The translations under genes and the position numbers were made by a program. The notes beneath the pieces are model-generated. The model saw only the letters and a list, made by a program, of their open reading frames with translations, made no database searches and was not told the origin of the DNA. From the NCBI GenBank assembly GCA_014871385.1, contig CM026426.1, positions 60,178,084 through 60,242,083 on the forward strand: a stretch of DNA of 64,000 bases, read 5' to 3'. This stretch comes from Ceratodon purpureus (Eukaryota > Streptophyta > Bryopsida > Pseudoditrichales > Ditrichaceae). Positions 11,465 to 39,117 of this stretch are shown here, piece after piece; the stretch's first letter is position 1; each line of letters starts with the position of its first letter.

Positions 11465-11469
<5 letters not shown>

Positions 11470-18530: not shown

Positions 18531-18979
18531 TGATTTTATTTTATTCCCTTCGTCTCTTCCAATGTTTTATCCTTTTTTGTTTTCCACATCTCTTCTAATA
18601 TTAATGCACTATTTTTTTTGTGGTCAACATTATATTATTCATCGTGCATTAGATCAGTATTCTGTTATGGCATAACTCAGTTTCTAATCATCATGGGATT
18701 TATTCATCTTGATAACTTCTTTCATCCCATGTTATTCATCCCTTTTTTATCCCGAGTCTCTTATTATAGTCATGATTGTTTTTCTATAATTTGATATCTC
18801 ATCCCCAAATTATTCAAATCAGTATTCCTTATTTTAATATCTCTTTGTAATTTTTTATTTTTTATTTTAATTTTGAGAGAAATGGTGAAAAAATCAATTG
18901 CATTTCTTTGTATTATTGTCTTCCAACCTTCTTCAATGCTACTCCTAAGTAAAATCAGAGAATTTTTCATGGTGCGGAC

Positions 18980-19217
18980 CCTCTCGCGCCCACCCCTGGA
19001 CCTGCTCGCGCCCCCCCCCCAAACTTGCTCGCGCCCCACTAACCCGCTCGCGCCCCCCCCCCCCCCCACGAACCCGCTCGCACCCCCCCTAAACCCGCGC
19101 GCGCCCCCCCCCCCCCCCCCTTTGATCCCGCTCGCGCCCCCCCCTAAGCCGCTCGCGCCCCCCCTTGACCCCGCTCGCGCCCCCCCCCCCCCCCCCCCCC
19201 CCTCCCGACTATATAAG
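18980..19217. promoter_or_regulatory. Element 1 GC array and TATA box upstream of RING gene
   Basis: About ten copies of CCCGCTCGCGCCCCCC with variable C runs (18980-19205), then CTATATAAG at 19209-19217. The ATG of the RING gene is 342 bp downstream, as in element 2. Confidence 0.75.
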
Positions 19218-19274
19218 TGAAGGGGGCGCCCTCCCCCCCCCCCACTTTTTAAGCTCCACCTTGGCACTCAGGCC

Positions 19275-19432
19275 TTGAACTACCTCGTGGTGGCTTATTG
19301 CTGAGTACTTGGGTGGGGTCTACAGCATTTTCACAACGCCACGTACCTCGTTCAACTGTATTTTGTACGCTCATCCAAGGAATTGGGCCCTAAACTACCT
19401 CACGGTGGCTTATTGCTGAATACTTGGGTGGG
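19275..19432 (+). repeat. Duplicated ~43-bp block in RING gene leader
   Basis: A block containing AACTACCTC.GGTGGCTTAT followed by TGCTGA.TACTTGGGTGGG occurs twice, starting near 19277 and 19391 (about 114 bp apart), between TATA box and ATG. The same pair is kept in element 2 (about 34966 and 35080). It is not coding. Conservation of both copies in both elements hints at a regulatory RNA or DNA role, unproven. Confidence 0.7.
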
Positions 19433-19551
19433 CCACAAAGTATAGTTAGAATACCATAATCAACCACGTACGAAATTTGTAAAATCATTTGGGGGAAGTT
19501 TTGAGGAGTTGGTGTGTTTTTTAACACACAAAACTTTACTAGTAGACCACG

Positions 19552-21933: not shown

Positions 21934-22194
21934 GAATAGTTACAACTTAGTACTAAGTGACTAGTTTTCATATACTACAGTTTTTGTAATGTTTTGGTTT
22001 GAATTGGTAATGAAATGCTTTTACTTATATAAATGTATACAACATTGCAAAGTCCATGTATTTTGGCTCACGAGTATCTCATTTTTTCTATACAGAATTT
22101 ACACATTTGTCATTGCGCTTAGCCCCAATATATTATTTTGATGAAAATGTTAGGTTTTTTTGCATTGTCAAAAATTTACTATCTACAAAATGGG

Positions 22195-22440
22195 CCGCAC
22201 GAAAAACCCGCTCGCGCCCCCCCTGAACCCGCTCGCGCCCATTCCCCCTGAACCTGCTCGCGCCCATTCCCCCTGAACCCGCATGCGCCCCCCTTGAACC
22301 CGCTCGCGCCCCCCCTCGTGAACCCGCTCGCGCCCCCCCCCCCCCCCCCCCCCCCCTTGAACCCGCTCGCGCCCCCCTGATCCCGCTCGCGCCCCCCCCC
22401 CCCTGTACCCGCTCTCGCCCCCCTACACATGTTGGCACCC
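22195..22440. repeat. Element 1 right subterminal GC array (C-rich on +)
   Basis: Ten or so copies of GAACCCGCTCGCGCCCCCC between the RING gene and the 3' end. It is the mirror polarity of the left subterminal array. Confidence 0.7.
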
Positions 22441-22579
22441 CTTTTGCATATGTGGAATTCCCCGTCATCGTTCGTTGTCCATGTCATCAATATGTTTCCC
22501 CTATAGGTAAGTTGTAAAAAAAAAAAACTAACTTAGTAATTTTCCTCCTCCCCTCAATGTCCGATTATGTCCGGGGACC

Positions 22580-22686
22580 GACCGGTCCGTCCGTCCGTCC
22601 GTCCGTCCGTCTATGTCCGTCCGTCCGTCCGTCCGTCCGTCTATGTCGGGAAATTTTGCCCATGTCCGTCCGATAAGACAACCCTG
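22580..22686 (+). repeat. Element 1 right end with (GTCC)n blocks
   Basis: Two runs of CCGT tetranucleotides separated by CTATGTC, then AAATTTTGCCCATGTCCGTC and the terminal ACAACCCTG. Element 2 has one shorter run. GTCCG words also lie inside the left ends (10900-10960, 26350-26405) and may be transposase-binding subterminal repeats. Confidence 0.7.
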
Positions 22687-22694
22687 CCAACCAT

Positions 22695-23525
22695 GAGGAG
22701 TATGGACAAAGCTCCGCCCAAGGGGGACACCGTTCGCGAGATCGTCAAGACATGGGACCCCACGAACGGGGCTATGGCCACGGGGAACCGGAAGGAGCTG
22801 ATTTACCCTTTGACTTTACGGATGGTGCCTATGGACCGTATGGGGGACGACTGTGGCCAGATTATGCAACGGGATCAAGATACTTTAGTAACTATGACGA
22901 CGGCTGGTCGGAAATACCGAATCCTCCAAGGAGTGCTAGTCCGCGCCATCGAACACCTGCGAGAGAGGTACCTCACGGTTATTCCCTAGATCGCGAAGAA
23001 GATACGCAGAGACTGGGACGTGATGATTACGCAACTCCCCCTCCATACCGCGGATATGGTGGTCATGCTACCCCATTTGCCCTATTTGCAGAAGATGATT
23101 ACAGATCATCTTCGCAGACTCCGCCTGGAATATTTCCTCCACCTCTAGGTTATCACACCGACGGTACTGATCACAATAGCGGGGACAACCCCAACGTACT
23201 TCATCCCGATGACAGAGTACCACCTCCTCCTTTTGGATACCCTCCCGGTCAAGTTGTAAGAGATAGCTATTTTGAGGAAGAATTAGAGTTGGAGCGGACA
23301 AGGCAAAATTACGTACTACAGATGGAGAATCATGCGTTTCACCTCAGACGAGATAATCGAAGATTGATGGAGGAGAGAGAGAGACTTCTGAGAGCCTCCA
23401 CAAATTCTGCACGGCACGGGCCACAAGAAACGTACGATCGGGGAGGTCCAAGCGAACTCCCCAATGATGGGAACTATTATCATCCATATGACTACAATGG
23501 ATTAGGGTGGAGGGGAGACTATTAG
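22695..23525 (+). pseudogene. Gene B, 3' half
   Basis: Continues the frame of 10204-10875. Codons starting at 22695 read open to a TAG ending at 23525, with the same Arg/Gly/Tyr/Asp/Pro-rich style as the sequence just upstream of the insertion (MGPHERGYGHG, DDYATPPPYRGYGG). Near the C-terminus is a short charged coiled coil (ELELERTRQNYVLQMEN, RRLMEERERLL). No RING finger is present. The compositional and frame match across 11.8 kb is independent evidence that element 1 is an insertion with the stated boundaries. Confidence 0.75.
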
Positions 23526-24461
23526 AATGGGGTGCATGGTAGTACTTTCTACAGCAACGCAGCGTACCAAGTCTTTAACGTGGACATCGCATATTACAAA
23601 TTTACAACGGAAAGTAAAAGATGCAAGCATAGTATGTACGTAGTTTGCAGTTTTGTAGATGGAGATTTAAAATGTACGGACTCAAGAAAATTGGCACGTG
23701 CCACATTTTGCAAACAGAACAGATAGAATTAGTGGAATAGAGTGTAGTTGTGTTGTCTTCTATATTGTAGTTGTCTTCACATTTGAAAGGAATTTACCTT
23801 TTTAATATTCTTCTAGCGGTATTCTAATTGCACATTAATATCAATATCCCTTTTTTGACAACTTACCATTGACATGGGTTACGACTTACGAGCACTAGAA
23901 TATTATGAATCTCAAGACAAGTATGCAAAATAATTTTCAAATATTTTTTTTGCTAAATTAATAAGAATATCGTGAATGATATTTTTTGAGGGATGCATAT
24001 TTATATCTAAGGTATTTGTTTGTACCGGGGATTATGAGCAATCATGTTATGCGGCCCTTACGCTTTCGTCTTCACGAAAAGAACTTGAGTATACGCTTGC
24101 CAATATTTCTAAGAGTAAAACGTACAAAGCATAACGGTTACAATTCACATATCGCATCATTTTCATAATTAGAATTGAGACTATCGACTTTTAGCTGGAT
24201 GTGTGGAGCCAATCCGTTTTCCTCATAATACAAGGGGTAGAAATAGACCAATCTCAGTACAGAGACCATATTTGAACCAAATGCAAGTAAACTTTATAAA
24301 CAAAATATTGACCGGTGTACAAAAATTGAGATTCCATCATCTCATCATAAAATAGAGTCTAAATATAACTAGTCACTGCTGAGAGCTATGTCAGCCGTCT
24401 GATAAGAAAAAAAACATTATGAAATTATAGGAATACAGAGAGGTAGATATGTCTCTCCATA
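23526..24461. other. AT-rich intergenic region between convergent gene B and kinase X
   Basis: Shared 3' flank of gene B (+) and kinase X (-). I see no gene, repeat array or RNA gene here; it probably holds the two 3' untranslated regions. Confidence 0.5.
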
Positions 24462-25936
24462 TCAGTAACCCACGCGGTAGTGCTCGAAGGGAGTGGGCCA
24501 GTTGTGTGTATCTCTGAAACGGTTAATAAGATGTCCGAGTCCACCAATCGTTCCTCTGTTGTTTTGGCAAACTCTCTCAAGGTAACCTTCGAAAACCATT
24601 GTGAGTTCTCCGATATTCTTGAAATGGCGTGTTTCTACTGGCTCCGCTTCGTGGTATGCCGTGCATATGTTGCCCCTGTTGATCTTTGTCGCAATCTTCG
24701 CAGCTGCGAAATCCTCCGATGCAACCGTCAAATCTGGAATGATTTGAATATCTTGGTTTTCGTTGTGTACGTATACCACGCGAGGATCCACCCAGTATCG
24801 CCTCCTCATAGTCTCCTCCTTCTGATGGACACTCTCAAAAACCCAAGGCGACCTTCTGTTCTCTAGTGTCTTCGTCATCAAGCCCCAATCACAAACCCCG
24901 ATGTAGATCTTGGACTCATCTTCCGGAAAGTGAAGTAGGATGTTGTCCGGTGACAAGTCATTGTGGAGGTAACCGTATTTGTGCACAACATCTATGATGT
25001 TTCACAATGCCCAAGCAAGCTCTGTACGCTTACTTCGGAAAAGTTGGAGACGCTTCCCTAGAATCGGACTGTCCTCTGCATTCTCTCTGAAGATGTAGTC
25101 GATGGGGAGGTCACCCGGGGCCTCGTTGTCTCTCTGTAGCATGGCTCGAAGGGTCCCACCGTTCCACCAGAACATGAATCCCACATGTTCCAACTGATGA
25201 ATGGCCATGAAGCGGATGACACCAGGATGGGGAATCCTTATCGCAAGAGATTTATTGTTGTGGTCCACACGTGCCAAATCCGGCCTCATAGACCAATTGA
25301 GCGGCCGTTTCTCAGCAAACTCCCAGTACGGTGGGATTTCCAGGTTTCCCTCGATACGAACCCTACGTATGGTAGCATAACCACCTCTCTGGACTTCCTT
25401 GTCCAAGTAATAGAAATTGCAAAGTCTGCCAAGATAGTCAAATGCCGTTTACGTAAGTCAGCCGCCGTCTCCATCCCAATCGGAGAATTCCACCAAGTAA
25501 TAGACGTCCGTCGATGCTTTCTTGAGCTATGGGGCGCCATTAGTCTCGTGAAGCAATTTGCCTTTGCAATAGTATCCTTGAAGGCCTGGACTCCCCCCCT
25601 TTGCGCCTTTGCATACTTAGTAATAACCTCTTCAGCATTCCATAACGCATCGTGTGCACGTTGTGACACGAAATGATCGTAACCGGGCTTCTGTGTATCC
25701 GAATGCCAGCACGGATCCATCAAACGATCCCTAATCTTTGTCTCCATCTCTGACTTGAATTTCCTGGGCCCATCTTCCTCATACCGAACGTAACGACTAT
25801 TCAATGAAACAAGGGTATTCTCCTGGTAAAATTCCACGATGAATGCCACAATATAATCCCCGCAACATAAGCTCGGCATGTCATCAAATTTGTTCGCCCC
25901 TTCCCCCACATTCTTTTGCTTCTTGTTCTTCGGCAT
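24462..25936 (-). pseudogene. Kinase X: kinase-like cargo gene of element X, broken
   Basis: Homologous to the kinases of elements 1 and 2 but clearly diverged. ATG at 25936. A frameshift near 25410-25440 joins the N-terminal region (FVSQRAHDALWNAEEV) to the kinase fold, and a TGA at 25002-25004 interrupts it. Readable kinase motifs: RGGYATIRRVRI (glycine loop), WEFAEKR (candidate ATP-binding Lys), LHNDLSPDNILLHF (catalytic Asp kept) and IGVCDWG (DFG variant). The catalytic residues are intact, so the lesions look recent relative to family divergence. It lies between gene B and the GGCCGTCC array that element 2 entered. Confidence 0.82.
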
Positions 25937-26213
25937 CGTGGAAAGCCTTCAAGGCTTCAAGAAATCGAAACCGCAACTCCAAAGAAACCCTCAATTCCCA
26001 CAAAGATTAATAAGAGCAATACAAATCCAAAGGGTTTTGAAAAAAACCGTTTAAGATTTCAAAAAGACCACCCCCCCCCCCCCCCCCCCAAATAAAGGAC
26101 CCCTTTCCTCCCGGTGAGAACGACCAACGGAGAAGGAGCGAATCCCCCACCAGTAGCAATGAGCCTCACTCGAAAAGGGAGAAAAAAGGTAAAAAATGAA
26201 GAGGCGGCTTCCC

Positions 26214-26326
26214 CTTATATAGGTAAAGCCGACCTCGCGGCCGTCCCCAAGGCCGTCCCCGCGGCCGTCCGATCTACGGCCCTCGCGGCCGTCCGATTGG
26301 GCGCGAATCCGCCCGAAGGCGCCGGC
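26214..26326. promoter_or_regulatory. Kinase X TATA box and start of GGCCGTCC array
   Basis: TATA box (plus CTTATATAGG, 26214-26223) for the leftward kinase X, followed by the first GGCCGTCC repeats. The array is interrupted at 26327 by element 2 and resumes at 38311. A poly-C tract (about 26071-26089) lies in the leader, as in gene A. Confidence 0.65.
26319..26326. repeat. Target-site duplication of element 2, left (right copy 38311-38318)
   Basis: GCGCCGGC on both sides, 8 of 8 identical, the hAT length. Confidence 0.95.
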
Positions 26327-26544
26327 CAGGGTTGTTCATGGGACAAAAGGACCTGTCCGTCCGTCCGGTCCGCTCGTCCGTCCGTTAGGGGTCAGGGGAG
26401 GTCCGTTTGACCAGGACTTACGGTTGACCACCCAAATGGTGAAATGGGAGTTACCTTGGCCACCTAGGATGCCACGCGTCCGACATGTCACCAAATATTG
26501 TTGACTTGGGGGATGACGTGGCTAAGAGGAAGGGCGCCAACGCC

Positions 26545-26845
26545 TTGAGTGAGGGTGGCGCGAGCACGTGAGAGGGGGGGCGCGAGCGTCTTGGGAAGGG
26601 GGGCGCGAGCGAGGGGGCGCGAGCGACTGGGAGGGGCGCGGGCGCCTGCGAGGGGGGGGGCGCGAGCGCCTTTGATGGTGGGGGGGCGCGAGCGCCTGCG
26701 ATTGCAGGGGGGCGCGAGCAAGGGGTTTGGGGTGGGGGCGCGAGCGCCTGCGAAGGGGGGGCGCGAGCGCCTGCGAAGGGGGGGCGCTAGCGCCTGCGAA
26801 GGGGGGGCGCGAGCGCCTGCGAAGGGGGGGGCGCGAGCTGGGAAC
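26545..26845. repeat. Element 2 left subterminal GC array (G-rich on +)
   Basis: More than a dozen GGGGGGCGCGAGCG units with spacers such as CCTGCGAA. It is longer than in element 1 (about 300 versus 127 bp), so arrays expand and contract between copies. Confidence 0.75.
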
Positions 26846-27129
26846 AAGAATCAACCACTGAAGGAAATTAAGACACTACTGAATTTTTCATAGTGACATA
26901 AATGAGAGAAGTTTCAATTCATGTCGAAACAAAATTACATTCAATAGCCTTAGCTAATGTTTTATGGACATTGACTAAGGTTAACATATAAGTATCTACG
27001 TATAAAATTTAGATATATATATATATATATATATATTATATTTTTTTGTGTTTTTTTAAAATTATTTTGGAGACATATATATTATACTTTCTCTATATAA
27101 CTTCTATATGTAATATGCTAATAGATGTA

Positions 27130-30100
27130 TCACTTTTTTTTGTTTTTTTTGGCGGTGCGCCGCTCTGGATTCCTTCGAGTACCGGGCTTACCCAATGGTA
27201 CTCTTACAACAATGTCTTCATCATCAGGTGCTTCTTCACGGCTATCTTCTGATGAGTAATATCCTTCTGAGGATTTCGACCCCTCGTCATCTCCATCTCC
27301 CCCCTGATTAGGCTGATTAGGCACATACTCCTCCACCGTGGAATGAATGTTGCGAATTTCGTGGTCAACTGTACCATCCACCACTGTGGTCACAATTCTT
27401 TTGATCTTCCGTCTTTTGGTCTTATCGGTGATTCCGTCCACATTCATTACGGGTAATCTACGTTTACCCAGAGCCACAGGTACAGACGGGGTAGTTCCAA
27501 CAGTATATCCTGAAAAAAAAGGGCGAACGTTTGTTGGACCTTTCCGTGACCGTATCACTCCATGACGCGTCGTAGAAGGTCCAGCTGGTAGACTTTGTCC
27601 AGAAGAAGTGAGTGGAATGCTTGTATTCGGAGTTGGAGTTAATGAACCATGCCCAGTAGAAGTGTTTGAACGAGGTGGAGGGGGTCGACCCAACCCTGCA
27701 AGTACTGCTCCGATTGAAGGTGTACTCTGGGGCAGGGGTGTTTGAAACAATCGGCCAATAGGAATTTCATCTTCTTCTCCATTTCTGACTGTCTCGGATT
27801 GTTCATTTCTTGGAGGGCTTTCATCCAAACCTCCAGACCTGATTGTTTCCTCAACATTTACTGGCAGAGTGGCCTGGAGTTGTTCAACTTCTTCTCCTCC
27901 CTCAACGTCTTCTGGAATTGGAATTTGCTCTCCCATGTTGTTACCCCCTTCTTCATTGTCATTGTTCGAAACGCTACGAACGGGGTAAATGTCATCATTA
28001 TTGCCACCATCGTCGCTTTGATGCTGAGTCATTTCGACTTCAAATTCATCGTCAATATCATCGTCTGCCCGATCGTATGCGACCTCGCCTCTAGCTTGTA
28101 TTTCATTGACAACGTGGTGAGGCGAAGTAGCTGCCTCTTCATCAAATCCTGCCCAGTCAAAAACTCCATTCGGCTGGTTAACGGGTTCAGTGCGTGGCAT
28201 GTCACCATCACCATTGTCCACGGGTAACTCTGGATACTCATCATCCATAGTAGCAGGAGTGTAATGAACTCCACCGTCATCACCATCGCCTTCATTAACT
28301 TCAAGTCCGTCGTGGAATCCTTCATCTCCATCATCATCACATACGTCTTCATCGTACATGGCTGGCACTTCTTCATCCGAGTCTTCGGAGAACGGTTGGT
28401 TCTCGTACCAAAGAACAGGATCCGCTCCACGTCGTTCTCGAAGGAGCTTACTGTTCGTGTAAATGTACACCAAGTCTTCTGCCTTCTTCACGGCCAATCG
28501 GTTGCGAACCTTACTGTGAACAAAGGAATACATGCTCCAATTTCGCTCACATGATGATGCCGAGCATGTTAACGAAAGGATGCGCTTTGCTATCAACGGT
28601 AACGCATCGCCCCCAACCCGCTGCCACCATTGATGAGGTAGCATCTTAGTCTGTCGAATGTTTGGGGCCTCCAAAGGGCTGAATGGACCGGTGCGTTCCT
28701 CAAACTGTGTTAGCTCGAACAACACAGTATCGTGGTCCAGTTTAAGGCACTCACTCAAATGAATTAGCACTTGCAGGAGTGCACGCTTCGCAGCACTGTT
28801 AGTCAATAGCTCGTGGCTCTCCGGGAAAATGTAGGGATTCAAAATGGCGCCTGCGTAATGGAGATCTGTCAACATCATCTTCCATCTCTTCGTAAAATGT
28901 TTCTCAAAGCGATCTGCTATAGCGGGGTCTAGGAAAAAAGGATCACCCCGTAGACGGAACACATGCTTCTTCAAATTATTCATGGCCAACCATGCCCTCC
29001 CCATTGCCGGTGTTTGTCCATCAAATGTCTTCAAGGTCACAACAGCCGGCTTCATAACATGCACAAGATTCTCACAACGTAACCAAAATGTCTCATCGAG
29101 AATGGTACTCCGTACTTGACATGCTAAGGTGTGAGCTCGATAACCGTTTGACCGATTGAATAAAGTACCCACATATTCGTCCCATTTCGGACTGGCTACC
29201 ACCTGGATTAGTGGCTCCCTCAGTTCAAGCAATCGAACAATCATCAAGTACGAGCATCCAAATCTTGTCTCCGCTGGTAACAACAGAGACAACTTCGGGC
29301 TGAATTGGCGAAACAAAGCCATGGTGACATGACGGCGACGTATAAAATTTGGTATGCGTTTTGCCAAGGCAATCAGCTCTTTGAAGGTTGCTTCCTTCCC
29401 CCAATCTTCTAGTAAGAGGTCCATGATGTGAGCTGCACAACCTTGCTTGTAAATGTGAGGATAAGCTTCAACCACCTGGTCCATGGCTCCCAACATCGCA
29501 CTAGCATTGTCGGAGCAAATCTGTACCACATTCTGCGGTCCAACTTCTTTGATGTACTCTTTCAATTTCCCAGCTATGTATGCCTTTGATTTCTTGTACC
29601 CCGTTGTATCAATGGAACCCAGGAATATATCTCCTGCTGGACACACAAGCATGACATTCATCAACGGCCGATGAACAACGTTGTCCCATCCATCCGAGCA
29701 AATAGTTGCCCCGTACAAGCTAATACACTGCTTCGTTTTCTCCTCTATTCTCAACTTGAGAAGCTGCTTTGTTGGCTGGATGTGCTTGGTTCGCATTGCG
29801 TTGTATGCTGGTGGACGGTACACAAAACCCGCTTTCGATGTTGCCTCCACAGCAGCGATAAAAGATGGATGTCTAACCACATTGAAAGGCACATTCGCTT
29901 CATAAAAATAGGACGCCCATTTTTCATCCAATTCATTGCGCATCCCAATCTGATAGGCCTCGGTAAAACTTTGTTGCCGCATAGATCTTGGTGTACATGA
30001 ATCGCCTCTGCTTATAGGCGGAGTTGACTGAGACGGTTGAACTTGGGAAATCCTCTCCTCTTGGACCTCCTCCGTTCTCTGAGGCACTTCCGTAGATTGC

Positions 30101-30423
30101 TCAGCAGGCATAGACTGGCTAGAACATGGTGCCAAGTGTGCCAAGTGTGCCTCGCCATCACCACCATCAGTGCCGTATATCTCCGCATGTGTCATTCTTT
30201 TTGGTATTACATTACCACAATTGGCAAAACGCCTAAATACGGCGGCGGGGGCCTTCGTACAATGACTCTTGCTTGAACCTTCACCCCATCCATAGTGCTT
30301 GAAAGCTCTTTGTCGTTTATAACGAAAGGTGAAATTGCACCACACACATTTCACATGGTCCTTATCAATGAACGTCCACCACGGAGCCCACTCAGCCGTC
30401 GACTGACGCTGTTGACCTGCCAT
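27130..30423 (-). CDS. hAT-superfamily transposase of element 2, intact, with long acidic tail
   Basis: 1097 aa from the ATG at 30423 (the frame is open 14 codons further upstream without an ATG). A BED-type zinc finger lies at about residues 10-60 (WTFIDKDHVKCVWCNFTF, then HYGWGEG and SKSHC). The RNase H-like catalytic core contains CSDGWDN (first Asp), CSDNASA (second Asp) and the typical CAAHIMDLLLEDWGK. The C-terminal dimerisation domain has ILSLTCSASSCERNWS (Glu of the triad region), HSKVRNRLAVKK and LVYIYTN. After it comes an unusual ~400-residue tail, first strongly acidic (DEDVCDDDGDEGFHDG), then Ser/Pro/Gly-rich with basic patches (KTKRRKIKRI). Typical hAT transposases are about 600-900 aa and stop shortly after the dimerisation domain. 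It would act in the nucleus to cut and paste elements 1 and 2. Confidence 0.95.
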   Translation of the reverse strand: MAGQQRQSTAEWAPWWTFIDKDHVKCVWCNFTFRYKRQRAFKHYGWGEGSSKSHCTKAPAAVFRRFANCGNVIPKRMTHAEIYGTDGGDGEAHLAHLAPCSSQSMPAEQSTEVPQRTEEVQEERISQVQPSQSTPPISRGDSCTPRSMRQQSFTEAYQIGMRNELDEKWASYFYEANVPFNVVRHPSFIAAVEATSKAGFVYRPPAYNAMRTKHIQPTKQLLKLRIEEKTKQCISLYGATICSDGWDNVVHRPLMNVMLVCPAGDIFLGSIDTTGYKKSKAYIAGKLKEYIKEVGPQNVVQICSDNASAMLGAMDQVVEAYPHIYKQGCAAHIMDLLLEDWGKEATFKELIALAKRIPNFIRRRHVTMALFRQFSPKLSLLLPAETRFGCSYLMIVRLLELREPLIQVVASPKWDEYVGTLFNRSNGYRAHTLACQVRSTILDETFWLRCENLVHVMKPAVVTLKTFDGQTPAMGRAWLAMNNLKKHVFRLRGDPFFLDPAIADRFEKHFTKRWKMMLTDLHYAGAILNPYIFPESHELLTNSAAKRALLQVLIHLSECLKLDHDTVLFELTQFEERTGPFSPLEAPNIRQTKMLPHQWWQRVGGDALPLIAKRILSLTCSASSCERNWSMYSFVHSKVRNRLAVKKAEDLVYIYTNSKLLRERRGADPVLWYENQPFSEDSDEEVPAMYDEDVCDDDGDEGFHDGLEVNEGDGDDGGVHYTPATMDDEYPELPVDNGDGDMPRTEPVNQPNGVFDWAGFDEEAATSPHHVVNEIQARGEVAYDRADDDIDDEFEVEMTQHQSDDGGNNDDIYPVRSVSNNDNEEGGNNMGEQIPIPEDVEGGEEVEQLQATLPVNVEETIRSGGLDESPPRNEQSETVRNGEEDEIPIGRLFQTPLPQSTPSIGAVLAGLGRPPPPRSNTSTGHGSLTPTPNTSIPLTSSGQSLPAGPSTTRHGVIRSRKGPTNVRPFFSGYTVGTTPSVPVALGKRRLPVMNVDGITDKTKRRKIKRIVTTVVDGTVDHEIRNIHSTVEEYVPNQPNQGGDGDDEGSKSSEGYYSSEDSREEAPDDEDIVVRVPLGKPGTRRNPERRTAKKNKKK

Positions 30424-30621
30424 TCTCCGTGTCTCTGAAAAAGTACAATGATCTCCTCTCTGCAACTGTTAGTATGACACATGTGAGAAAAAAATGGTAT
30501 GTGTAGACATCAACCACAGGCCAATGTGATGCACATAGTCTCAAGCAAGGAGCCCACAAGGAGTTCCGGGACTAGAGGCCATGATTTCAAATGATATTGG
30601 GCTTGGGCTAAGTTGGTGGCA

Positions 30622-31055
30622 TTTATACTTCTGAGGGGGGGCGCGAGTTTCTCCAGGCGGGGGGGCGCGAGCGTGTGCAGGGGGCGCGAGTTTCTCCAGG
30701 TGGGGGGGCGCGAGCTTCTCTTTCCAGGGGGGGGGGCGCGAGCTTTTCCAGGGGGGGGCGCGACCTTCTCCAGGGGGGGCGCGAGCTTCTCCAGGGGGGC
30801 GCGAGCTTCTCCAACAGGGGGGGCGCGAGCTTCTCCGAGGGGGGGGGCGCGAGCTTCTCCAAGGGGGGGGGCGCGAGCTTCTCCAAGGGGGCGGGCGCGA
30901 GCTTCCCCAAGGGGGGGCGCGAGCTTTTTCAAGGGGGGGGGCGCAATCTACTGCAAAGGAGGCGCGAGCTTCTCAGAGGGGGGGCGCGAGCTTCTGGAAG
31001 GGGGGGGGCGCGAGCTTCCAGAGGGGGGGGCGCGAGCGGGTTAGGGGGGAGGCAC
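30622..31055. promoter_or_regulatory. Element 2 GC array and TATA box upstream of transposase
   Basis: About 420 bp of GGGGGGCGCGAGCTTCTCC repeats, G-rich on plus, with a TATA-like ATTTATAC at about 30621-30628 about 200 bp upstream of the transposase ATG. It occupies the interval between the transposase and the kinase 3' end. Confidence 0.68.
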
Positions 31056-31268
31056 CCTTGTACGAGGGGCAGTCCCGGTGAATGGGCCATACAGTTTTTT
31101 CATTTTTTTTTAAAAAACAATTTTTCATTCCATTACAAAACCAACAATACCATTTCATTTTCCACCAAGGCATGTATACGCCGAAAAAACGATTTATTAA
31201 AATATTCGAAATGTGCAAACAAGGCCACATAGGCAATCAAAATGTTCCAAACGTAATTCACTATGGAA

Positions 31269-32849
31269 CTACAATGTGTATCTAAAACAACCATTGGGAG
31301 CTTGGAAGTTGTAAGGGGGGCTCATCAAATCATTCACAACTTTTGCAAGTGAAAGCCTCTTTGTAGGATCTTCGTTAAGCAAGCCATCCAACTTTGATGA
31401 GAATACAATCTTTGAGATTGAATCCTTGAAGAGTTCTGGGCAATCTTCTTCTCTCCATATCTTCTTTGCCAAATGGCCTACCGAAAATGCATCAGATAGC
31501 GTCGTACATGGATGCATCCTCTTCATGCGCTCCAAATTCCGTTCCTCATCATCTTTTTTGCCATATAAAAAGAACAACTCCGGTGCAACTCCTACCCTCC
31601 TCTCCTTTACTTGTACAAGTTCAATGGGGTCCATCACACCATAAGGGGAGGCCTTGTTCTCAATGACTCTGCTTGCCACACCCCAATCGCACACACCAAT
31701 ATATACTTTATTCTTGTCATGAGGTGGAAAGTGGAGTAGAATGTTGGATGGCGTTAAGTCGTTGTGGAGGATTTCAGCCTTATGGACTATGTCCATAACG
31801 TAGATGAGACTCCACGCCAACATTCCCCGGTTCTTTCGGTAGGCAACAATTCTTTGGCACTCTTCCATGGGCATATCCCTCGACTTCAAAATTTCTTTGT
31901 AATCTGTTGCCTCGGATGCCTTCTCATTTATCTTGAGGAAGTTGCGGAGGCAATCTCCATTCCACCACAGGGTATAAGCTTCCATGGTCTTAGCGTGAAT
32001 GGCCCAAAATTTTATCACACCCGGATGCTCTACGGGGTTAACCGTGGCCTCAATCGCCCGTTCCTCTCGCTTCTTCACTTCGGTTTTAGCCTTGGAAAGT
32101 TTTCCCGCAAATTCTATGTGAATTGGAATTTTCTTCATATTGGCTATTCGCACTTTTCGCACTTTGCCATACCCCCCCTCGGCATTGAAGCCAGATAATG
32201 GCACAACCTTGGCCGTAACCGGAATCCATATCAATGCACCATACATGTGTGCTTCCAATGCTGAGTTCAATGCTTGCTCATTCCAAGGCATAATCTTTGT
32301 TTTCCCCTTAGAACATCTCTGACATGCCTCCTGAACCGTTGTCAGTTTTTGAATAAAGACTTTGTCTTGGTTGCTCCATTCTTCGCCTTGTGGTTTCTTG
32401 ACATGTGATTCAAACACATGAATGACATTTGTCGTAGCACTACTCACTTGTTGTGTCAACCACTTCGGGCTGTGAAAATACTTCGTCATGCAATCCATGT
32501 ACATCTCTGATCCTTCCAATGCGCTCCAAAATTCCCTTTCCAAATCACGTTGGAGGTTGTAGATACCATCCTCTCCGTGATCAAGGTACATTGCCTTCAA
32601 CATTCGTATGGTACGGGCCTTGTAGTACTCGACGGCCACCTTCCTGATGAAATGCGTATACTCCAATGGTGGATAACCGTCATCCTTCTCGTGCGCTGGA
32701 ATACTCTTCTTCTTTTTACCCTTCGAGCTAGATGAAGGAGTAGAACCACTAGAACCATGAGGTGTTACGCAACTCATAGGGTCCACCGCATCTGGAGCAT
32801 CCAAGTCCACATACATAGGCCGCTTGCCGGAGCCTTGTCTAGAAGACAT
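31269..32849 (-). CDS. Protein kinase-like cargo gene of element 2, intact
   Basis: 526 aa, ATG at 32849. Ser/Lys-rich N-terminus (about 1-60), an alpha-helical region (about 60-200), then a compact kinase domain: glycine loop FNAEGGYGKVRKVRI, candidate ATP-binding Lys in FAGKLSK, catalytic loop ILHNDLTPSNILLHF (HND replaces HRD but Asp and Asn are kept) and metal-binding CDWG (DWG replaces DFG). A PDPE/APE-like segment (GVAPELFFL) and a C-lobe motif (DPTKRLSLAKVV) follow. The substrate is unknown. It is transcribed away from the RING gene across the tandem-repeat spacer. The motif set implies possible catalytic activity; its role in transposition or host manipulation is speculation. Confidence 0.88.
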   Translation of the reverse strand: MSSRQGSGKRPMYVDLDAPDAVDPMSCVTPHGSSGSTPSSSSKGKKKKSIPAHEKDDGYPPLEYTHFIRKVAVEYYKARTIRMLKAMYLDHGEDGIYNLQRDLEREFWSALEGSEMYMDCMTKYFHSPKWLTQQVSSATTNVIHVFESHVKKPQGEEWSNQDKVFIQKLTTVQEACQRCSKGKTKIMPWNEQALNSALEAHMYGALIWIPVTAKVVPLSGFNAEGGYGKVRKVRIANMKKIPIHIEFAGKLSKAKTEVKKREERAIEATVNPVEHPGVIKFWAIHAKTMEAYTLWWNGDCLRNFLKINEKASEATDYKEILKSRDMPMEECQRIVAYRKNRGMLAWSLIYVMDIVHKAEILHNDLTPSNILLHFPPHDKNKVYIGVCDWGVASRVIENKASPYGVMDPIELVQVKERRVGVAPELFFLYGKKDDEERNLERMKRMHPCTTLSDAFSVGHLAKKIWREEDCPELFKDSISKIVFSSKLDGLLNEDPTKRLSLAKVVNDLMSPPYNFQAPNGCFRYTL

Positions 32850-33004
32850 GGCAAAGTAAATCCCTGAAAAAAAAATTCAACAACTTCCCCCCCCCGCCCC
32901 AATGAAGACTTCCCACATAAGCAGTTCCAAGCAAGGCGTGTTTTCACACGTCAGGACAAGGAGCCGCAGTGGGAAGGAGTGAGGGGGGCGAGAGCTTCTC
33001 CCCA

Positions 33005-33235
33005 CCTTATATAGTCCCCACGGACCCGCTCGCGCCCCCCCCCCCTGAACCCGCTCGCGCCCCCCTGTACCCGCTCGCGCCCCCCCTATACCCGTTCGCG
33101 CCCCCCCCGTACCCGCTCGCGCCCCCCCACCCGCTCGCGCCCCCCCCCCTGAACCCGCTCGCGCCCATACCCGTCCGCGCCCCCCCAACCCGTTCGCGCC
33201 CCCTCAGGCACGCTCGCGCCCCCCCCCTTCCATTT
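33005..33235. promoter_or_regulatory. Element 2 GC array and TATA box upstream of kinase
   Basis: CCCGCTCGCGCCCCCC repeats at 33020-33232, C-rich on plus, with TATATA (plus CTTATATAG, 33005-33013) on the kinase side. Confidence 0.7.
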
Positions 33236-33379
33236 CTTTTCTCTCTCATTTTTTATTTTCTATTTCTCTTCTGGAAATAGTGAAATCTCTACACTACTTT
33301 CTAAGAGAAAAAAATGAAATAAAACAAATTAAAAAATACAGAGTATTGGGATTTTATACTTGCACAACCTCTCATGCAG

Positions 33380-34215
33380 CTCTAGCCTCTCTTCCACTCC
33401 ATGCTATTGATTTAATTGTAAAACGTCTATCTCCCAAACCAATTGCGTCGATCCCTTATTTATGATTATTTATAATATGTTAGAGCATTGTAGGATCCAT
33501 ATGTTCAATGCATTATATTTTTTATTTTTTTAAACTCTAATCGAACTCTCTTCCACACCATGCTATTCTTTTTTATTTTAATCCCTTTATCTCTTCCACT
33601 CCATGCTATTGATTTAATTTTATTTTTTCCGTTTATATGCCAAACCGATTGCATCGAGCCCTTCTTTATGATTCTTTATATTTTTTATTATATGTTAGAG
33701 CATTGTAGGATCCATATGTTCAATGCATTATATTTTTTATTTTTGTAAACTCTAATCGAACTCTCTTCCACACCATGCTAATCTTTTTTATTTTAATCCC
33801 TTTATCTCTTCCACTCCATGCTATTGATTTAATTTTATTCCGTTTATATGCCAAACCAATTGCATCGAGCCCTTCTTTATGATTCTTTATATTTTTAATT
33901 ATATGTTAGAGCATTGTAGGATCCATATGTTCAATGCATTATATTTTTTATTTTTGTAAACTCTAATCGAACTCTCTTCCACACCATGCTAATCTTTTTT
34001 ATTTTAATCCCTTTATCTCTTCCACTCCATGCTATTGATTTAATTTTATTTTTTCCGTTTATATGCCAAACCAATTGCATCGAGCCCTTCTTTATGATTC
34101 TTTATATTTTTAATTATATGTTAGAGCATTGTAGGATCCATATGTTCAATGCATTATATTTTTTATTTTTGTAAACTCTAATCGAACTCTCTTCCACACC
34201 ATGCTATTCTTTTTA
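33380..34215. repeat. Four ~211-215-bp tandem repeats in element 2 spacer
   Basis: GCATTGTAGGATCCATATGT recurs at about 33485, 33700, 33911 and 34126 (spacing 215, 211, 215). Same units as in element 1 with scattered substitutions. No coding potential. The remainder to 34600 is AT-rich and collinear with element 1. Confidence 0.9.
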
Positions 34216-34599
34216 TTTTATTCTAATATTAATACACTAATTTTCTTGTAGTCAACTTTATATTATTCATGGTGCATTAGATCAGTATTCCGTTATGGGA
34301 TATTTCAGTTTCTAACCACCATGACATTTATTCATCTTGATAACTTCTTTCATCCCATGTTATTCATCCCTTTTTATCCCGAGTCCCTTATTATAGTCAT
34401 GATTGTTTTTCTATAATTTGATTTCTCATCCCCAAATTATTGAAATCAGTATTCCTTATTTTCATATCCCATTTTAATTTTTAATTTTTAATTTTATTTT
34501 AGAGAGAAATGGTGAAAAAATCCATTGCATTTGTTTTTATTATTGTCTTCCAACCTTCTTCAATGGTACTCCTAAGGAAATGAGAGTTTGTTTTATGGG

Positions 34600-34906
34600 G
34601 GGACCCGCTCGCGCCCCCCCCCCCTGAACCCGCTCGCGCCCCCCCCCCCCTGAACCCGCTCGCGCCCCCCCCATACCCGCTTGCGCACCTCCCCTGAACC
34701 CGCTCGCGCCCCCCCCAATACCCGCTCGCGCCCCCCCATACCCGCTCGCGCCCCCTGCCTCGCTCGCGCCCCCCCCCCCCGAGACCCGCTCGCGCCCCCC
34801 CCCCAAACCCGCGCGCGCCCCCCCTTAATCCCGCTCGCGCCCCCCCTCAGCCGCTCGCGCCCCCCCGACCCCGCTCGCGCCCCCCCCCCCCCCCCCGACT
34901 ATATAA
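34600..34906. promoter_or_regulatory. Element 2 GC array and TATA box upstream of RING gene
   Basis: About fifteen CCCGCTCGCGCCCCCC units (34600-34890), then CTATATAAG starting at 34899. ATG at 35242. The duplicated ~43-bp leader block follows at about 34966 and 35080. Confidence 0.75.
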
Positions 34907-35241
34907 GTGAAGGGGGCGCCCTCCCCCCCCCACTTTTTTTAGCTCCACCTTGGCACTCAGGCCTTGAACTACCTCACGGTGGCTTATTGCTGAGTACTTG
35001 GGTGGGGTCTACAGTATTTTGACAACGCCACGTACCAGCTTTCAGCCTTATTTTGTACGCTCATCCGGGAATTCGGGCCCTAAACTACCTCATGGTGGCT
35101 TATTGCTGAATACTTGGGTGGGCCACAAAGTCTAGTTACAATACCACAATCAACCACGGAGGAAAATTTTAAAATCAATTGGGGGAAGTTCTGAGGAGTT
35201 GGTGTGTTTTTTAACACACAAAACTTTACCAGTACACCACG

Positions 35242-37620
35242 ATGGAGGGAAACCCAGATCCGGCGGAGGAAAGGCCACTCACCAAGGCCGAAAAGAAGAA
35301 AATCAGAGATCGTGAACGGAAGCGTGGTGGCAAGAAGATGAAGAAGCGGCTCCATGTGCTGAACAACCCCACAAAGTTGGCATTTAGAGGTTGGCAAGAT
35401 GAGCCGGAACCGTGGAAATATTCCACATGCGAGGAATTCATTGAGTGGTGCCACATCACAAAAATATTTCCACATGATCGGCACAGAAAACACAGGATCT
35501 CAGACAAGGCTAACCTCTATTATTGCTTGAATGCGGAGTTTGTTGAACGTTCTATACAAGTTTACCAGCATCTATACAAGCAACGATGTGTTGAACGCAA
35601 TGAAGTACCATTGTTCATTTGCAGAATGGTGTATGCTGAGGTGGTGCTTCACAAAGTGGTGGATTGGTCCACCATCAAATCCACGCCGAGTGTTAGGGCG
35701 CCGACAGAGCGTGACATTCCCAAACAAAGGAAATACGCAGATGGTGGCCTGGGGAAAAAAATGAAGGAAAAAACACAAGTGCGGGAGCCTGATACAGCAG
35801 AGTCTGAACCAGATTCTGATTCCGATGGTCGTCGTGGAGAACGTCCACCACGTAGAATTGCAGCATCAGCAAATATGGCTGTAGAGCCTCCAATGAACCA
35901 TCCAGCGGACGTCATAGAACCTCATGACGATGCGAACAACATCTTCGTGGAAAACGATCCAAATACGGCAGCTAATTTGGACGTGGTCGGAACTGAACCT
36001 ACGATGGTTCTTGGCATGCCGGTTCTAGTTAGAAATGACCAGTCTAACCAGACCGAGGAGGTCGGGGAGTTACAATTACAGCTAATAGAAAAGGATGGCT
36101 TCATTGCAGAGTTACAAGAGACCATCCGAAAACTACGATTGGAATCAGCAGCAAAAGATGCAGTAATATCAGATTTGCGCAATCAATTGCAAGAACGAGA
36201 AAGACCTCAGTCTTCTCAAGCCAATGAAATACCTGTAGTTCAAGATCCAATGTTGGTGGATGAATCTTACATCAACAACACGGTTGATGTTGCAACGGCC
36301 GGTGTGTTGGAGAATATTTCCACTCCAGCAAAACGACGACGAGTTGGAGTGATATTGCCTCCACCAGCCCCATACCCGCGAGCCTATGTGGACATCGATG
36401 GACCATTAAGTCAAGATTCCTTGTCATTTCCACCCGATGCTCTAACGGGAGAAGTGGAGACATTGAAGAGAGCCAATAATGATTTGCGGCTCCTTGTTTC
36501 TAAGTTTGCTAAAGCATACTACGAGTGGAAAGTAGCAACCATTCTCAGCGTTGATCACGGGCGCCAAATTGCATTAGAGTTCAAGAAGATCGACGAATCG
36601 TACTTGCAACACAACAAACGAAGGAATTTTGGCCTCACTTCATGGACTAACGCAGATGATATGTATCCAGATACCATGGCAAAGCAAGAATCGAATCCTG
36701 AACTCATAGATTGGGCCAAGTTGAATTTCGATATAAACGCAACTTCGTGCCATGATCTTCAAATGAAGGAAGGAGTTAATAGCAGAAAGCTTTGGCCAAA
36801 TCCTCAACCGTGGGTGATGGATGGTTCAAAAGTATGCCCTGTGTGTATAAATCCATTTGGTCCTGAGGGTGGATGGGCAGTTGGATCATGTACCCACATG
36901 TTCCATCCTATGTGTTTAATTAACATTTTTTTGGTAAGGAGATTTTGCCCGGTGTGCAAATCCCCGTTCCATGAACGCTTGTACGAGGTTTTTGGACTCA
37001 CTCCATACATGCCACCAAGCCATGAGAAAAATCCCGAAAACACACCAGGTGAACAGTACCGCAACATGTGGGGGGAAGATTTGATTTGGAGTTGGCGGGC
37101 CCAGACTCACTCGGTCTTCAAGAGCAATGTAAGTGACGAGTTGGGATGGGAGGATGACCCCAATCAAATTGTGAGGGTGGCAAAGAAGATAATTGGATCA
37201 AAGAAGGAGGACCAAGGAAAACGAAATTTCTTCTATCAGACTTTGAATGGATACTGGGATCCGAAGCATAGGAAGTTCCAACTTGGTAATCACCCAAAAG
37301 GCCTCATATGGAACAAGGACGGGGAATTGGTTACAGACCTCGAAGGTCAATTCATGTCTTTGACCGCCCGTGATGCAGTCCAAATGTCTCTTTCGGAGTG
37401 GAAGTTAATTTTCAAACATGAGGCTGTTGACTTTCTTCTGGAGGAACACTCTCCACAGACATTGCGTACATTGAGAGAATTGAGGAACTCGCAAATTTTG
37501 CGTTCTCTCAGTGAAAGTGATGGCCCATTCCGGCGAACACGGACGAGAGCCAGGCGCAGCTTGACGCTGGACGATGGAGCGGGACCAAGTGGCACAGCGG
37601 GAGTAGATGCAGATGAATAG
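35242..37620 (+). CDS. RING2: coiled-coil RING-finger cargo protein of element 2
   Basis: Intact 792 aa, collinear with RING1 of element 1. MVYAE domain at about 45-150 (CEEFIEWCHITKIFP ... ICRMVYAEVVLHKVVDW), acidic linker, coiled coil about 280-325, and a helical region with EFKKIDESYLQHN. The RING-H2-like finger at about 530-575 reads CPVC, 14 residues, CTHMFHPMC, 10 residues, CPVC: all eight ligands present, C3H2C3. The conserved C-terminal region has YEVFGLTPYMPPS and GLIWNKDGELVTDLEGQF. Probable nuclear or cytoplasmic ubiquitin-ligase-like protein; the substrate is unknown. It is the only gene intact in both giant elements. Confidence 0.9.
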   Translation: MEGNPDPAEERPLTKAEKKKIRDRERKRGGKKMKKRLHVLNNPTKLAFRGWQDEPEPWKYSTCEEFIEWCHITKIFPHDRHRKHRISDKANLYYCLNAEFVERSIQVYQHLYKQRCVERNEVPLFICRMVYAEVVLHKVVDWSTIKSTPSVRAPTERDIPKQRKYADGGLGKKMKEKTQVREPDTAESEPDSDSDGRRGERPPRRIAASANMAVEPPMNHPADVIEPHDDANNIFVENDPNTAANLDVVGTEPTMVLGMPVLVRNDQSNQTEEVGELQLQLIEKDGFIAELQETIRKLRLESAAKDAVISDLRNQLQERERPQSSQANEIPVVQDPMLVDESYINNTVDVATAGVLENISTPAKRRRVGVILPPPAPYPRAYVDIDGPLSQDSLSFPPDALTGEVETLKRANNDLRLLVSKFAKAYYEWKVATILSVDHGRQIALEFKKIDESYLQHNKRRNFGLTSWTNADDMYPDTMAKQESNPELIDWAKLNFDINATSCHDLQMKEGVNSRKLWPNPQPWVMDGSKVCPVCINPFGPEGGWAVGSCTHMFHPMCLINIFLVRRFCPVCKSPFHERLYEVFGLTPYMPPSHEKNPENTPGEQYRNMWGEDLIWSWRAQTHSVFKSNVSDELGWEDDPNQIVRVAKKIIGSKKEDQGKRNFFYQTLNGYWDPKHRKFQLGNHPKGLIWNKDGELVTDLEGQFMSLTARDAVQMSLSEWKLIFKHEAVDFLLEEHSPQTLRTLRELRNSQILRSLSESDGPFRRTRTRARRSLTLDDGAGPSGTAGVDADE

Positions 37621-37865
37621 GAATAGTTACAACTTAGTACTAAGTGACTAGTTTTCATATACTACAGTTTTTGTAATGTTTTGGTTTGAATTGGTAATGA
37701 AATGCTTTTACTTTCATAAATGTATACAACTTTGCAAAGTCCATGTATTTTGGCTCACGAGTATCTCATTTTTTCTATGCTGAATTTACACTTTTGTCAT
37801 TGCGCTTAGCCCCAATATATTATTCTGATGAAAATGTTAGGTTTTTTTGCATTGTCAAAAATTTA

Positions 37866-38092
37866 CTATCTACCTGAACCCCCCTGAACCCGCTCGCGCC
37901 CCCCCCCCCCTGAACCCGCTCGCGCCCCCCCTGAACCCGCTCGCGCCCCCCCTGAACCCGCTCGCGCCCCCCCCCTGAACCCGCTCGCGCCCCCCCCCCT
38001 GAACCCGCTCGCGCCCCCCCTGAACCCGCTCGCGCCCCCCCCTGAACCCGCTCGCGCCCCCCTGAACCCGCTCTCGCCCCCTACACATGCTG
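37866..38092. repeat. Element 2 right subterminal GC array (C-rich on +)
   Basis: Ten copies of TGAACCCGCTCGCGCCCCCC, very regular here, between the RING gene and the 3' end. Confidence 0.75.
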
Positions 38093-38310
38093 GCACCCCT
38101 TTTGCATATGTGGAATTCCCCGTCATCGTTCGTTGTCCATGTCATCAATATGTTTCCCCTATAGGTAAGTTGTAAAAAAAAAAAACTAACTTAGTAATTT
38201 TCCTCCTCCCCTCAATGTCCGAGTATGTCCGGGGACCGACCGGTCCGTCCGTCCGTCCGTCCGTCTATGTCCGGAAATTTTGCCCATGTCCGTCCGAATA
38301 GACAACCCTG

Positions 38311-39117
38311 GCGCCGGCCGTCCGATCGGATGGCCGCGTCGGGCGATGGCACCGCGTGGCCGTCGCCCGACGCGTCCGTCTCCGCGGTCGGCCACATCTC
38401 CACGCCGTCGGCCACGCGGACGGCCGTGTCTCCACGCGGTCGCCCACGCGAACGGCCGCGGGATCGGACGGCCCTCCGCGGCCGCCATTGTCGGCCGGGG
38501 GGGCCGTCCGATCCCGTGGCATTTCCCGCGGCCGACCGCGGAGACGGCCGCCTGATCGGACGGCCCACCTAGGCCCACCATGGCTGCCGCGGGCCGTCCG
38601 ATCCCGCGGCCGTCGCCGTGGCCGACCGCGGGGACGGCCACGGGGATGGCCGCGGGATCGGACGGCCCGCGGTCGGCCGCGGCGATCGGGCGGTCCCTGA
38701 TGGCCCGTGCGGGGGTCGATCCGGGCCGTCGGATCCCGCGGCCGTCCCCGAGGCCGTCCCCGCGGTCGGCCACGGCGACGGCCGTGGGATCCGACGGCCC
38801 AGTAGGGCCGCCCACATCCGACGTCCCGCGATGTGCCAGCACGGCCGCATCTTGGCCGTCGGATCGACGTGCGGCTGTCTCGAGCGACCCCGCGGCCGTC
38901 CCCGCAGCCATTCTGGCGAGCGGACGGCCAAGATGGGGCGTGGTGGCGGGATCGGCCGATCGGACGGTTGGGGAATGTTTTTACCCCTCCGGAGTCGCAA
39001 AATTATTACCGCGACGTAATTCTCGAGCGTCGGGGACGCCAGGTCCGGAACGGGGGACGTCCGGGTCGGACGTCTTAACGTCCGGAGCCGGGGCGGACGT
39101 CTATTTGAACAACCGTG
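38311..39117. repeat. Rest of the X array and right terminus of element X
   Basis: The GGCCGTCC/GATCGGACGGCC array resumes after element 2 and runs to about 38960. It is followed by GGACGT/ACGTCC subterminal words (39020-39105) and GAACAACCGTG ending at 39117. On the other strand this reads CACGGTTGTTC, close to CAGGGTTGTTC of elements 1 and 2, so I take it as the right end of the element carrying gene A, gene B and kinase X. Flanking bases are CACAAAAT. No matching left end was found. Long ORFs here on both strands are GC artefacts. Confidence 0.6.

What the first reader, a model, noticed from the sequence alone, without database searches (positions are those of the whole stretch)
26327..38310. 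An intact 12-kb hAT transposon carrying a kinase gene and a RING-finger gene
Seen directly: perfect 8-bp target duplication (GCGCCGGC), 9-bp terminal inverted repeats, an open 1097-aa BED/RNase H-like/dimerisation transposase, an open 526-aa kinase-like gene and an open 792-aa RING gene. Established: hAT elements are normally 3-5 kb, make 8-bp duplications, and seldom carry full-length unrelated genes. Inference: an autonomous cargo-bearing hAT class in which kinase and ubiquitin-ligase-like proteins travel with the transposase.
Basis: partly seen in the sequence, partly recalled or inferred. Interest (0 to 1): 0.93.

Follow-up and report, generated by a model that had tools for sequence, protein, structure and literature searches.

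The report
Moss hAT transposon with kinase, RING genes
A 12-kb jumping gene in a moss carries, besides its own transposase, a protein kinase gene and a ubiquitin-ligase-like gene, and a distant cousin element in the same genome carries the same kinds of genes, so they look like standard equipment of this transposon lineage rather than accidental passengers.

Summary
Window 26327-38310 is an 11,984-bp hAT element with 9-bp inverted ends, perfect 8-bp duplications and open transposase, kinase and RING genes. A second, decayed copy lies at 10876-22686. The genome is evidently the moss Ceratodon purpureus. Of 26 copies with both ends found, 25 have perfect, mutually different 8-bp duplications; all 16 copies of at least 11.5 kb that I read in full carry the three genes. 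Genome searches scored 41 transposase, 82 kinase and 57 RING copies, mostly open (capped lists). Among recent copies all three genes show pN/pS of 0.20-0.26. Both window copies sit in an older element of a second family; an uninterrupted relative gives the empty site of both, ending exactly at the reported boundaries. That second family (16.6 kb) carries kinase, RING and RING-related genes and a transposase 34% identical. So kinase and RING look like old, integral parts of a hAT lineage. Function is inferred: probably host-directed accessory proteins, perhaps anti-silencing.

The parts
26319..26326 (.). left target-site duplication GCGCCGGC
   Evidence: single copy at the empty site
26327..38310 (.). 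family A element WIN1, 11,984 bp
26327..26335 (+). left terminal inverted repeat CAGGGTTGT
26327..26476 (.). left subterminal region with 7 GTCCG motifs (10 more in the right 150 bp; shuffle mean 0.34 for both ends together)
26552..26838 (.). minisatellite array (about 23-bp G+C-rich units)
27130..30465 (-). hAT transposase TNP-A, 1111 aa (1097 from ATG): DUF659 and hAT C-terminal dimerisation domains; DGW (258), CSDNA (317), QGCAAH (341), SASSCERNWS (635) motifs
30634..31037 (.). minisatellite array between transposase and kinase
31269..32849 (-). protein kinase KIN-A, 526 aa; FAGK (247), HNDLTPSN (362), CDWG (387) present
33016..33227 (.). minisatellite array
33388..34220 (.). 215-bp tandem repeat, about 4 copies
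34603..34892 (.). minisatellite array
35242..37620 (+). RING-finger protein RNG-A, 792 aa; C3H2C3 finger from residue 532; conserved N-terminal domain (about 37-162) without a Pfam match
37879..38081 (.). minisatellite array
38302..38310 (-). right terminal inverted repeat ACAACCCTG
38311..38318 (.). right target-site duplication GCGCCGGC
10876..22686 (.). second family A copy WIN2, 11,811 bp, 91-92% identical in its long aligned blocks; flanks CCATCCAT / CCAACCAT (7 of 8); transposase and kinase frames broken, RING frame open (19552-21933, 793 aa)
3811..39117 (.). decayed family B element in which WIN1 and WIN2 are nested; aligned to L061/L062 in three blocks once the two insertions are taken out; the part with the RING finger and the transposase was not matched in the window by blastn
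24462..25948 (-). relic of the family B kinase (KIN-B), frame broken
3786..5873 (-). relic of the family B RING gene, a 695-aa frame that ends before the RING finger

Best explanation
This is a recently amplified, very probably autonomous hAT transposon of a moss (Ceratodon purpureus) that encodes three proteins: a hAT transposase that would cut and paste the element by its CAGGGTTGT ends and GTCCG subterminal repeats, a protein kinase, and a RING-finger protein. Shown: the whole 12 kb has moved as one unit; in the copies read the three genes stay together and, among recent open copies, are constrained; a second family whose transposase is only 34% identical carries the same gene types. Inferred: kinase and RING are accessory proteins of the transposon lineage, kept because the element spreads better with them. 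I think it most likely that they act on host proteins (phosphorylating or ubiquitinating silencing or DNA-repair factors, an analogue of other transposon-coded helpers such as VANC), about 0.45; regulation of the transposase itself comes second, about 0.3; the rest is unknown.
For: 25 of 26 end-paired copies with perfect, different 8-bp TSDs. All 16 fully read copies of at least 11.5 kb have the three genes in the same order; 11 of 16 have all three frames open. Scored genome hits without stops: kinase 80 of 82, RING 53 of 57, transposase 38 of 41. pN/pS 0.20, 0.215, 0.262 for transposase, kinase, RING; Fisher p 1.6e-8, 2.5e-5, 1.5e-5. Paralogous empty site for both window copies. Family B: 16,586 bp, TSD TTTTTTCA, kinase, RING-related gene, RING gene, hAT transposase; of 10 further copies tried, 5 had both ends inside the fetched stretches and all 5 have perfect TSDs; 26 of 45 scored TNP-B have a scored KIN-B at 11.6-13.8 kb on the opposite strand, chance about 0.0024 each. 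A-B identity in the aligned parts: transposase 34%, kinase 29%, RING 27%, active-site and zinc motifs kept in both.
Against: No expression, excision or activity data. One assembly only, so no insertion polymorphism. Copies were chosen by end similarity; only open, near-full-length frames entered the pN/pS count, and the less filtered run gave higher ratios, 0.27, 0.41, 0.46. Only 47 of 82 scored kinases have a scored RING partner and 8 of 40 scored left ends have no scored kinase; the lists are capped, so unscored partners are possible. Pfam is under its cut-off for the RING of family A and for the kinase of family B (24.0 bits against 31.7). The kinase alone matches no solved structure at E<=0.001; its profile does, weakly. 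Host-directed action has no direct evidence here. One paired copy (C2_1639381) has mismatched flanks, and WIN2 7 of 8.
Confidence: 0.8

Rival explanations
1. Passive cargo: an ancestral hAT captured host kinase and RING genes by chance, and they hitchhike without serving the element.
For: Plant DNA transposons do capture genes (general knowledge); a 5.66-kb derivative without the kinase and about half of the RING gene also moved, with its own perfect TSD.
Against: Low pN/pS in both genes among recent open copies; most scored copies open; same gene types in family B with a 34% identical transposase.
Confidence: 0.1
2. Kinase and RING regulate the transposase itself (phosphorylation and turnover, limiting or timing transposition) rather than host proteins.
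For: In the copies read the three genes are transmitted as a set and constrained to a similar degree.
Against: No direct evidence either way; the parts of the RING protein outside the finger have no Pfam match that would point to a target.
Confidence: 0.3
3. The three genes are ordinary host genes in a segmental duplication flanked by chance by hAT-like ends.
For: None found in these calls.
Against: 25 end-paired copies with different perfect TSDs on eight chromosomes, and exact empty sites.
Confidence: 0.01
4. Kinase and/or RING belong to separate transposons nested in a simple hAT.
For: The window does have nested elements.
Against: Same positions and orientation in the 16 fully read copies; inside WIN1 no CAGGGTTG and only a lone CAACCCTG in the transposase gene.
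Confidence: 0.02

Closest known systems
hAT superfamily DNA transposons (Ac, Tam3, hobo/Hermes; DUF659-type hAT)
   Same: 8-bp TSD, short TIR beginning CAGGG, DDE-type residues, CxxH motif, C-terminal dimerisation domain; weak match to Hermes structures, E 0.00049
   Different: 12-17 kb instead of a few kb (usual size recalled), with kinase and RING genes
TET/JBP-carrying hAT7 and IS3EU transposons of rust fungi (PMC12730594, passages read)
   Same: DNA transposons, one group of them hAT, that carry a modifying-enzyme gene; IS3EU families there also carry an alpha-kinase gene
   Different: 7-bp TSD (hAT7), fungi, TET/JBP or alpha-kinase rather than an ordinary protein-kinase domain plus RING
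VANDAL MULEs with VANC anti-silencing proteins (PMC5735166, PMC10398659: starts of abstracts seen in the listing)
   Same: plant DNA transposon with accessory proteins that work against host silencing
   Different: superfamily MULE is recalled; VANCs are sequence-specific anti-silencing proteins, and anti-silencing is only a guess for the present element
ToxhAT / ToxTA of wheat-pathogenic fungi (PMC12506042, passages read)
   Same: 14-kb gene-carrying element once called a hAT
   Different: that paper finds a 2-bp TA duplication, cites 74-bp TIRs, places it nearer Tc1/mariner and calls it non-autonomous
Lanisha (Repbase Reports 2020, seen only as cited in passages of PMC12730594)
   Same: described by authors who, as I recall, work on Ceratodon
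   Different: EnSpm-like transposase, in a clade with 2-5-bp TSDs; the present element has a hAT transposase and 8-bp TSDs

Membership tests
hAT superfamily | 8-bp target-site duplication | tested here: met
   25 of 26 end-paired family A copies; 6 of 6 family B copies with both ends seen
hAT superfamily | short terminal inverted repeats | tested here: met
   CAGGGTTGT / ACAACCCTG in both families
hAT superfamily | hAT transposase with C-terminal dimerisation region | tested here: met
   Dimer_Tnp_hAT and DUF659 above cut-off; Hermes match.
hAT superfamily | DDE triad and CxxH motif (which residues these are is recalled from Hermes) | tested here: met
   D258, D319, C343, H346, E640 invariant in 30 aligned sequences; same motifs in family B
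hAT superfamily | N-terminal BED zinc finger | tested here: inconclusive
   no zf-BED match at E<=1 in TNP-A; E 0.071, below cut-off, in P0167
hAT superfamily | clustered subterminal repeats | tested here: met
   GTCCG 7+10 in the end 150 bp of A, shuffle mean 0.34; GACGTCC 3+3 in B, shuffle mean 0.04 (single-base shuffles)
protein kinase superfamily | catalytic Lys, HxD...N and DxG | tested here: met
   K250, E267, N369 invariant and H362, D364, D388 at 90% or more in 55 sequences; Pkinase above cut-off in family A, below it in family B
RING-type ubiquitin ligases | eight zinc ligands of a RING finger | tested here: met
   C3H2C3 pattern at residue 532 (A) and 726 (B); Pfam just below (A) and above (B) cut-off; profile match to RNF24, E 2.8e-7
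RING-type ubiquitin ligases | E2-dependent ubiquitin transfer | not testable with these tools
   needs biochemistry
Lanisha / EnSpm-like | 2-5-bp TSD and EnSpm-like transposase | tested here: not met
   8-bp TSD and hAT domains

The most novel reading that the evidence does not exclude
An old, multi-gene lineage of hAT transposons in mosses encodes its own kinase and ubiquitin-ligase pathway as a module that reprograms the host cell (silencing, repair or cell cycle) for transposition: a eukaryotic DNA transposon with a signalling toolkit like that of a virus.
Probability: 0.4. Interest if true: 0.9.

Novelty: new variant of a known kind. Interest (0 to 1): 0.75.

Why it matters
hAT elements are usually taken as lean transposase-only units. 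Here a kinase and a RING protein are found with two hAT transposases that are only 34% identical, and in the recently spread family all three genes look constrained. That suggests that transposition in this lineage depends on signalling or ubiquitin functions and gives a tractable moss system for asking how a transposon manipulates its host. The families also add many kinase and RING gene copies to the genome, which may inflate gene-family counts.

Tried and rejected
Viral or bacterial origin: pattern-matched stretches (46, 14 and 24) but no confirmed relative of the kinase in viral contigs or genome contigs, nor of the RING protein in viral contigs. Lanisha: rejected by TSD size and transposase type. 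Enrichment of family A on the large C6 chromosome: 18 of 82 scored kinases against 30.5% expected, not enriched (lower tail p 0.056); family B kinases are enriched (53 of 87, p 6e-9), its transposases not significantly (19 of 45, p 0.10); the lists are the best-scoring ones only. Expression from contig sizes: of 61 near-full-length homologues that I picked from the tables (fragments and other rows left out), 43 lie on contigs less than 1.2 kb longer than the coding sequence; this fits transcripts, but minisatellites between the genes would also break genomic contigs, so I draw no conclusion. Selection: one search included a frameshifted kinase (C2_1639381), an aberrant RING (C1_23171092), a RING with a stop (C6_17904458), a short transposase (C1_2493285) and the RING of WIN2; pairwise dN/dS was 0.20, 0.38, 0.40 and pN/pS 0.27, 0.41, 0.46 for transposase, kinase, RING, and WIN1 against WIN2 alone 0.41, 0.56, 0.48. 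One search left these sequences out (13, 14 and 13 remained). Trees (the kinase tree is the unfinished quick one, the transposase tree has a long family B branch of unlike composition) place families A and B far apart in both genes, but three linked pairs cannot test co-inheritance. I first took the transposase of C6_83055978 for a mosaic because tblastn pieces were 67-76% identical; its DNA is 99.0% identical, so it is a frame broken by small insertions or deletions. Structures could not be predicted. Whether a third family (P0163 + P0060) is in this genome did not complete. Literature: the ten searches (open-licence PubMed Central only) listed no description of this element that I could see; only passages of two papers were opened. 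The Ceratodon genome paper is not held and Repbase could not be searched, so an existing entry is possible.
Full report
What is there. The element runs from 26327 to 38310 and is flanked by GCGCCGGC on both sides; its ends are CAGGGTTGT and ACAACCCTG. It holds three uninterrupted reading frames: a 1111-aa transposase on the minus strand (1097 aa from the first ATG), a 526-aa kinase on the minus strand and a 792-aa RING protein on the plus strand, separated by G+C-rich minisatellites and a 215-bp tandem repeat. Pfam finds DUF659 and the hAT dimerisation region in the first, a protein kinase domain in the second, and a RING finger (just below its cut-off) in the third.

Where it is. The window is G000:C6:60178084-60242083. 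C6 is 110,524,308 bp long, the same length as the longest contig given for homologue P0135, named KC19_VG232100 of Ceratodon purpureus. I therefore take the organism to be this moss; that the chromosome is the male V chromosome is inferred from the tag and from recall.

A second copy next door. A copy 91-92% identical in its long aligned blocks spans 10876-22686 with the same three genes and flanks CCATCCAT/CCAACCAT; its transposase and kinase frames are broken, its RING frame is open.

Copies in the genome. Left-end and right-end searches each scored 40 full-length places out of 525 and 500 candidates. They pair into 26 elements, 25 of them 11.5-15.3 kb long and one of 5.66 kb. Of the 26, 25 have perfect 8-bp duplications and no two of these are alike; one (C2_1639381) has unlike flanks. 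I read 17 elements in full, WIN1 and WIN2 included: the 16 of at least 11.5 kb all carry the three genes in the same order, and the 5.66-kb one is an internal deletion that keeps transposase residues 167-1111 and RING residues 368-792. All three frames are open in 11 of the 16; the exceptions are WIN2 (transposase, kinase), C6_83055978 and C6_56892842 (transposase), C2_1639381 (kinase) and C6_17904458 (RING). Three more copies were read for their first 10 kb only (L009, L012, L018): L009 has a transposase cut off at residue 61 and no kinase in that stretch. Protein searches scored 82 of 1424 kinase candidates, 57 of 1748 RING candidates and 41 of 1545 transposase candidates; 80, 53 and 38 of these have no stop. 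These are lower bounds by the tool's own statement, and they favour the best-preserved copies. Of the 41 transposases, 37 have a scored kinase and 34 a scored RING gene where expected, 31 both; of 57 RING genes 47 have a scored kinase partner, but of 82 kinases only 47 have a scored RING partner; 8 of 40 scored left ends have no scored kinase. Some missing partners are present but not scored (C2_1639381), others are truly absent (C1_2493285).

Selection. Among recent copies, segregating changes per site give pN/pS 0.20 (transposase, 13 copies), 0.215 (kinase, 14) and 0.262 (RING, 13), each with Fisher p below 3e-5. Only near-full-length open frames were used, and WIN2 and aberrant sequences were left out, which biases toward intact genes; with them in, the ratios were 0.27, 0.41 and 0.46. 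Within that limit the kinase and RING genes are about as constrained as the transposase.

The empty site and a cousin element. Upstream of the element lies a broken kinase about 35% identical, in its better part, to the one inside. A search with its relative P0103 scored 87 of 1159 candidate places of a second kinase family. A young copy on C8 (L061-L063) turned out to be a 16,586-bp element with the same kind of ends (CAGGGTTGTTC...TGACAACCCTG) and an 8-bp duplication TTTTTTCA; it carries a 491-aa kinase, a 537-codon frame with the N-terminal domain of the RING protein but no RING, a 1060-codon frame with a RING finger, and a transposase 99% identical to P0167. Pfam scores this kinase below its cut-off (24.0 bits against 31.7) and the RING and hAT domains above theirs. 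Of ten further copies sampled, both ends fell inside the fetched stretches in five, and all five have perfect 8-bp duplications. Of 45 scored family B transposases, 26 have a scored family B kinase on the opposite strand 11.6-13.8 kb away. Both elements of the window are inserted in a decayed copy of this family B. The uninterrupted C8 copy therefore shows the empty site of both: one GCGCCGGC at the WIN1 site and one CCAACCAT at the WIN2 site, with the flanking sequence continuous. This fixes the boundaries at 26327 and 38310.

How far back it goes. Between families A and B the transposases are 34% identical, the kinases 29% and the RING proteins 27% in their aligned parts; the transposase motifs, the kinase FA(G/E)K, HNDL...N and CDWG motifs and the RING zinc ligands are kept in both. 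Homologues of the three proteins occur in public sequence collections, mostly unnamed; in my alignments they are 30-79% (transposase), 25-99% (kinase) and 34-96% (RING) identical to the window's proteins.

How it probably works. The transposase has the residues expected of a hAT enzyme and the ends carry clustered GTCCG (A) or GACGTCC (B) motifs that would serve as subterminal binding sites (inferred). The kinase keeps its catalytic residues and the RING protein its zinc ligands. That two enzymes of regulation are found with such diverged transposases, and look constrained during a recent burst, implies that they help the element spread. Whether they act on host silencing or repair proteins or on the transposase is not shown; I favour host-directed action by analogy with VANC proteins of VANDAL elements (starts of abstracts seen) and TET/JBP enzymes of fungal transposons (passages of PMC12730594).

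Known kinds. It is a hAT by every feature tested except the unconfirmed BED finger. Gene-carrying hATs are known in rust fungi (TET/JBP, PMC12730594). The 14-kb ToxhAT has been moved out of hAT by later authors (passages of PMC12506042). My ten searches of the open-licence library listed no description of a kinase-RING hAT; the Ceratodon genome paper was not held and Repbase was not searchable, so prior annotation is possible.

I withdrew the remark that one copy's transposase is a mosaic (its DNA is 99.0% identical) and added the partner counts, the less filtered selection ratios and the weak Pfam score of the family B kinase.

Noticed in passing
window 56448-60166: Ty3/gypsy-type retrotransposon genes (gag, reverse transcriptase, integrase); the string CAGGGTTGAACTGCACGCCCGTGG recurs at 55963 and 63766, which may mark its two long terminal repeats.
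   Followed up: no
window 39737-40558 and 44483-44863 (-): Relics of another member of the RING gene family, resembling P0122 by eye, broken in pieces.
   Followed up: partly
window 54394-55260 (+): A 288-aa frame with a weak RING-like match to the same family.
   Followed up: no
G000 C6 against the other chromosomes: Scored family B kinases are concentrated on C6 (53 of 87, expected 30.5%), scored family A kinases are not (18 of 82): the older family may have piled up on the large, probably sex, chromosome.
   Followed up: partly
L061:6995-8605 (-): Family B carries an extra protein with the N-terminal domain of the RING protein but no RING finger, a possible duplicate turned decoy or adaptor; no Pfam match at E<=0.1.
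   Followed up: partly
window 33388-34220 and the same place in other family A copies: The element's length varies from 11.5 to 15.3 kb; blastn shows several overlapping placements of the 215-bp tandem repeat in the copies, so changes in repeat number are a likely cause.
   Followed up: partly
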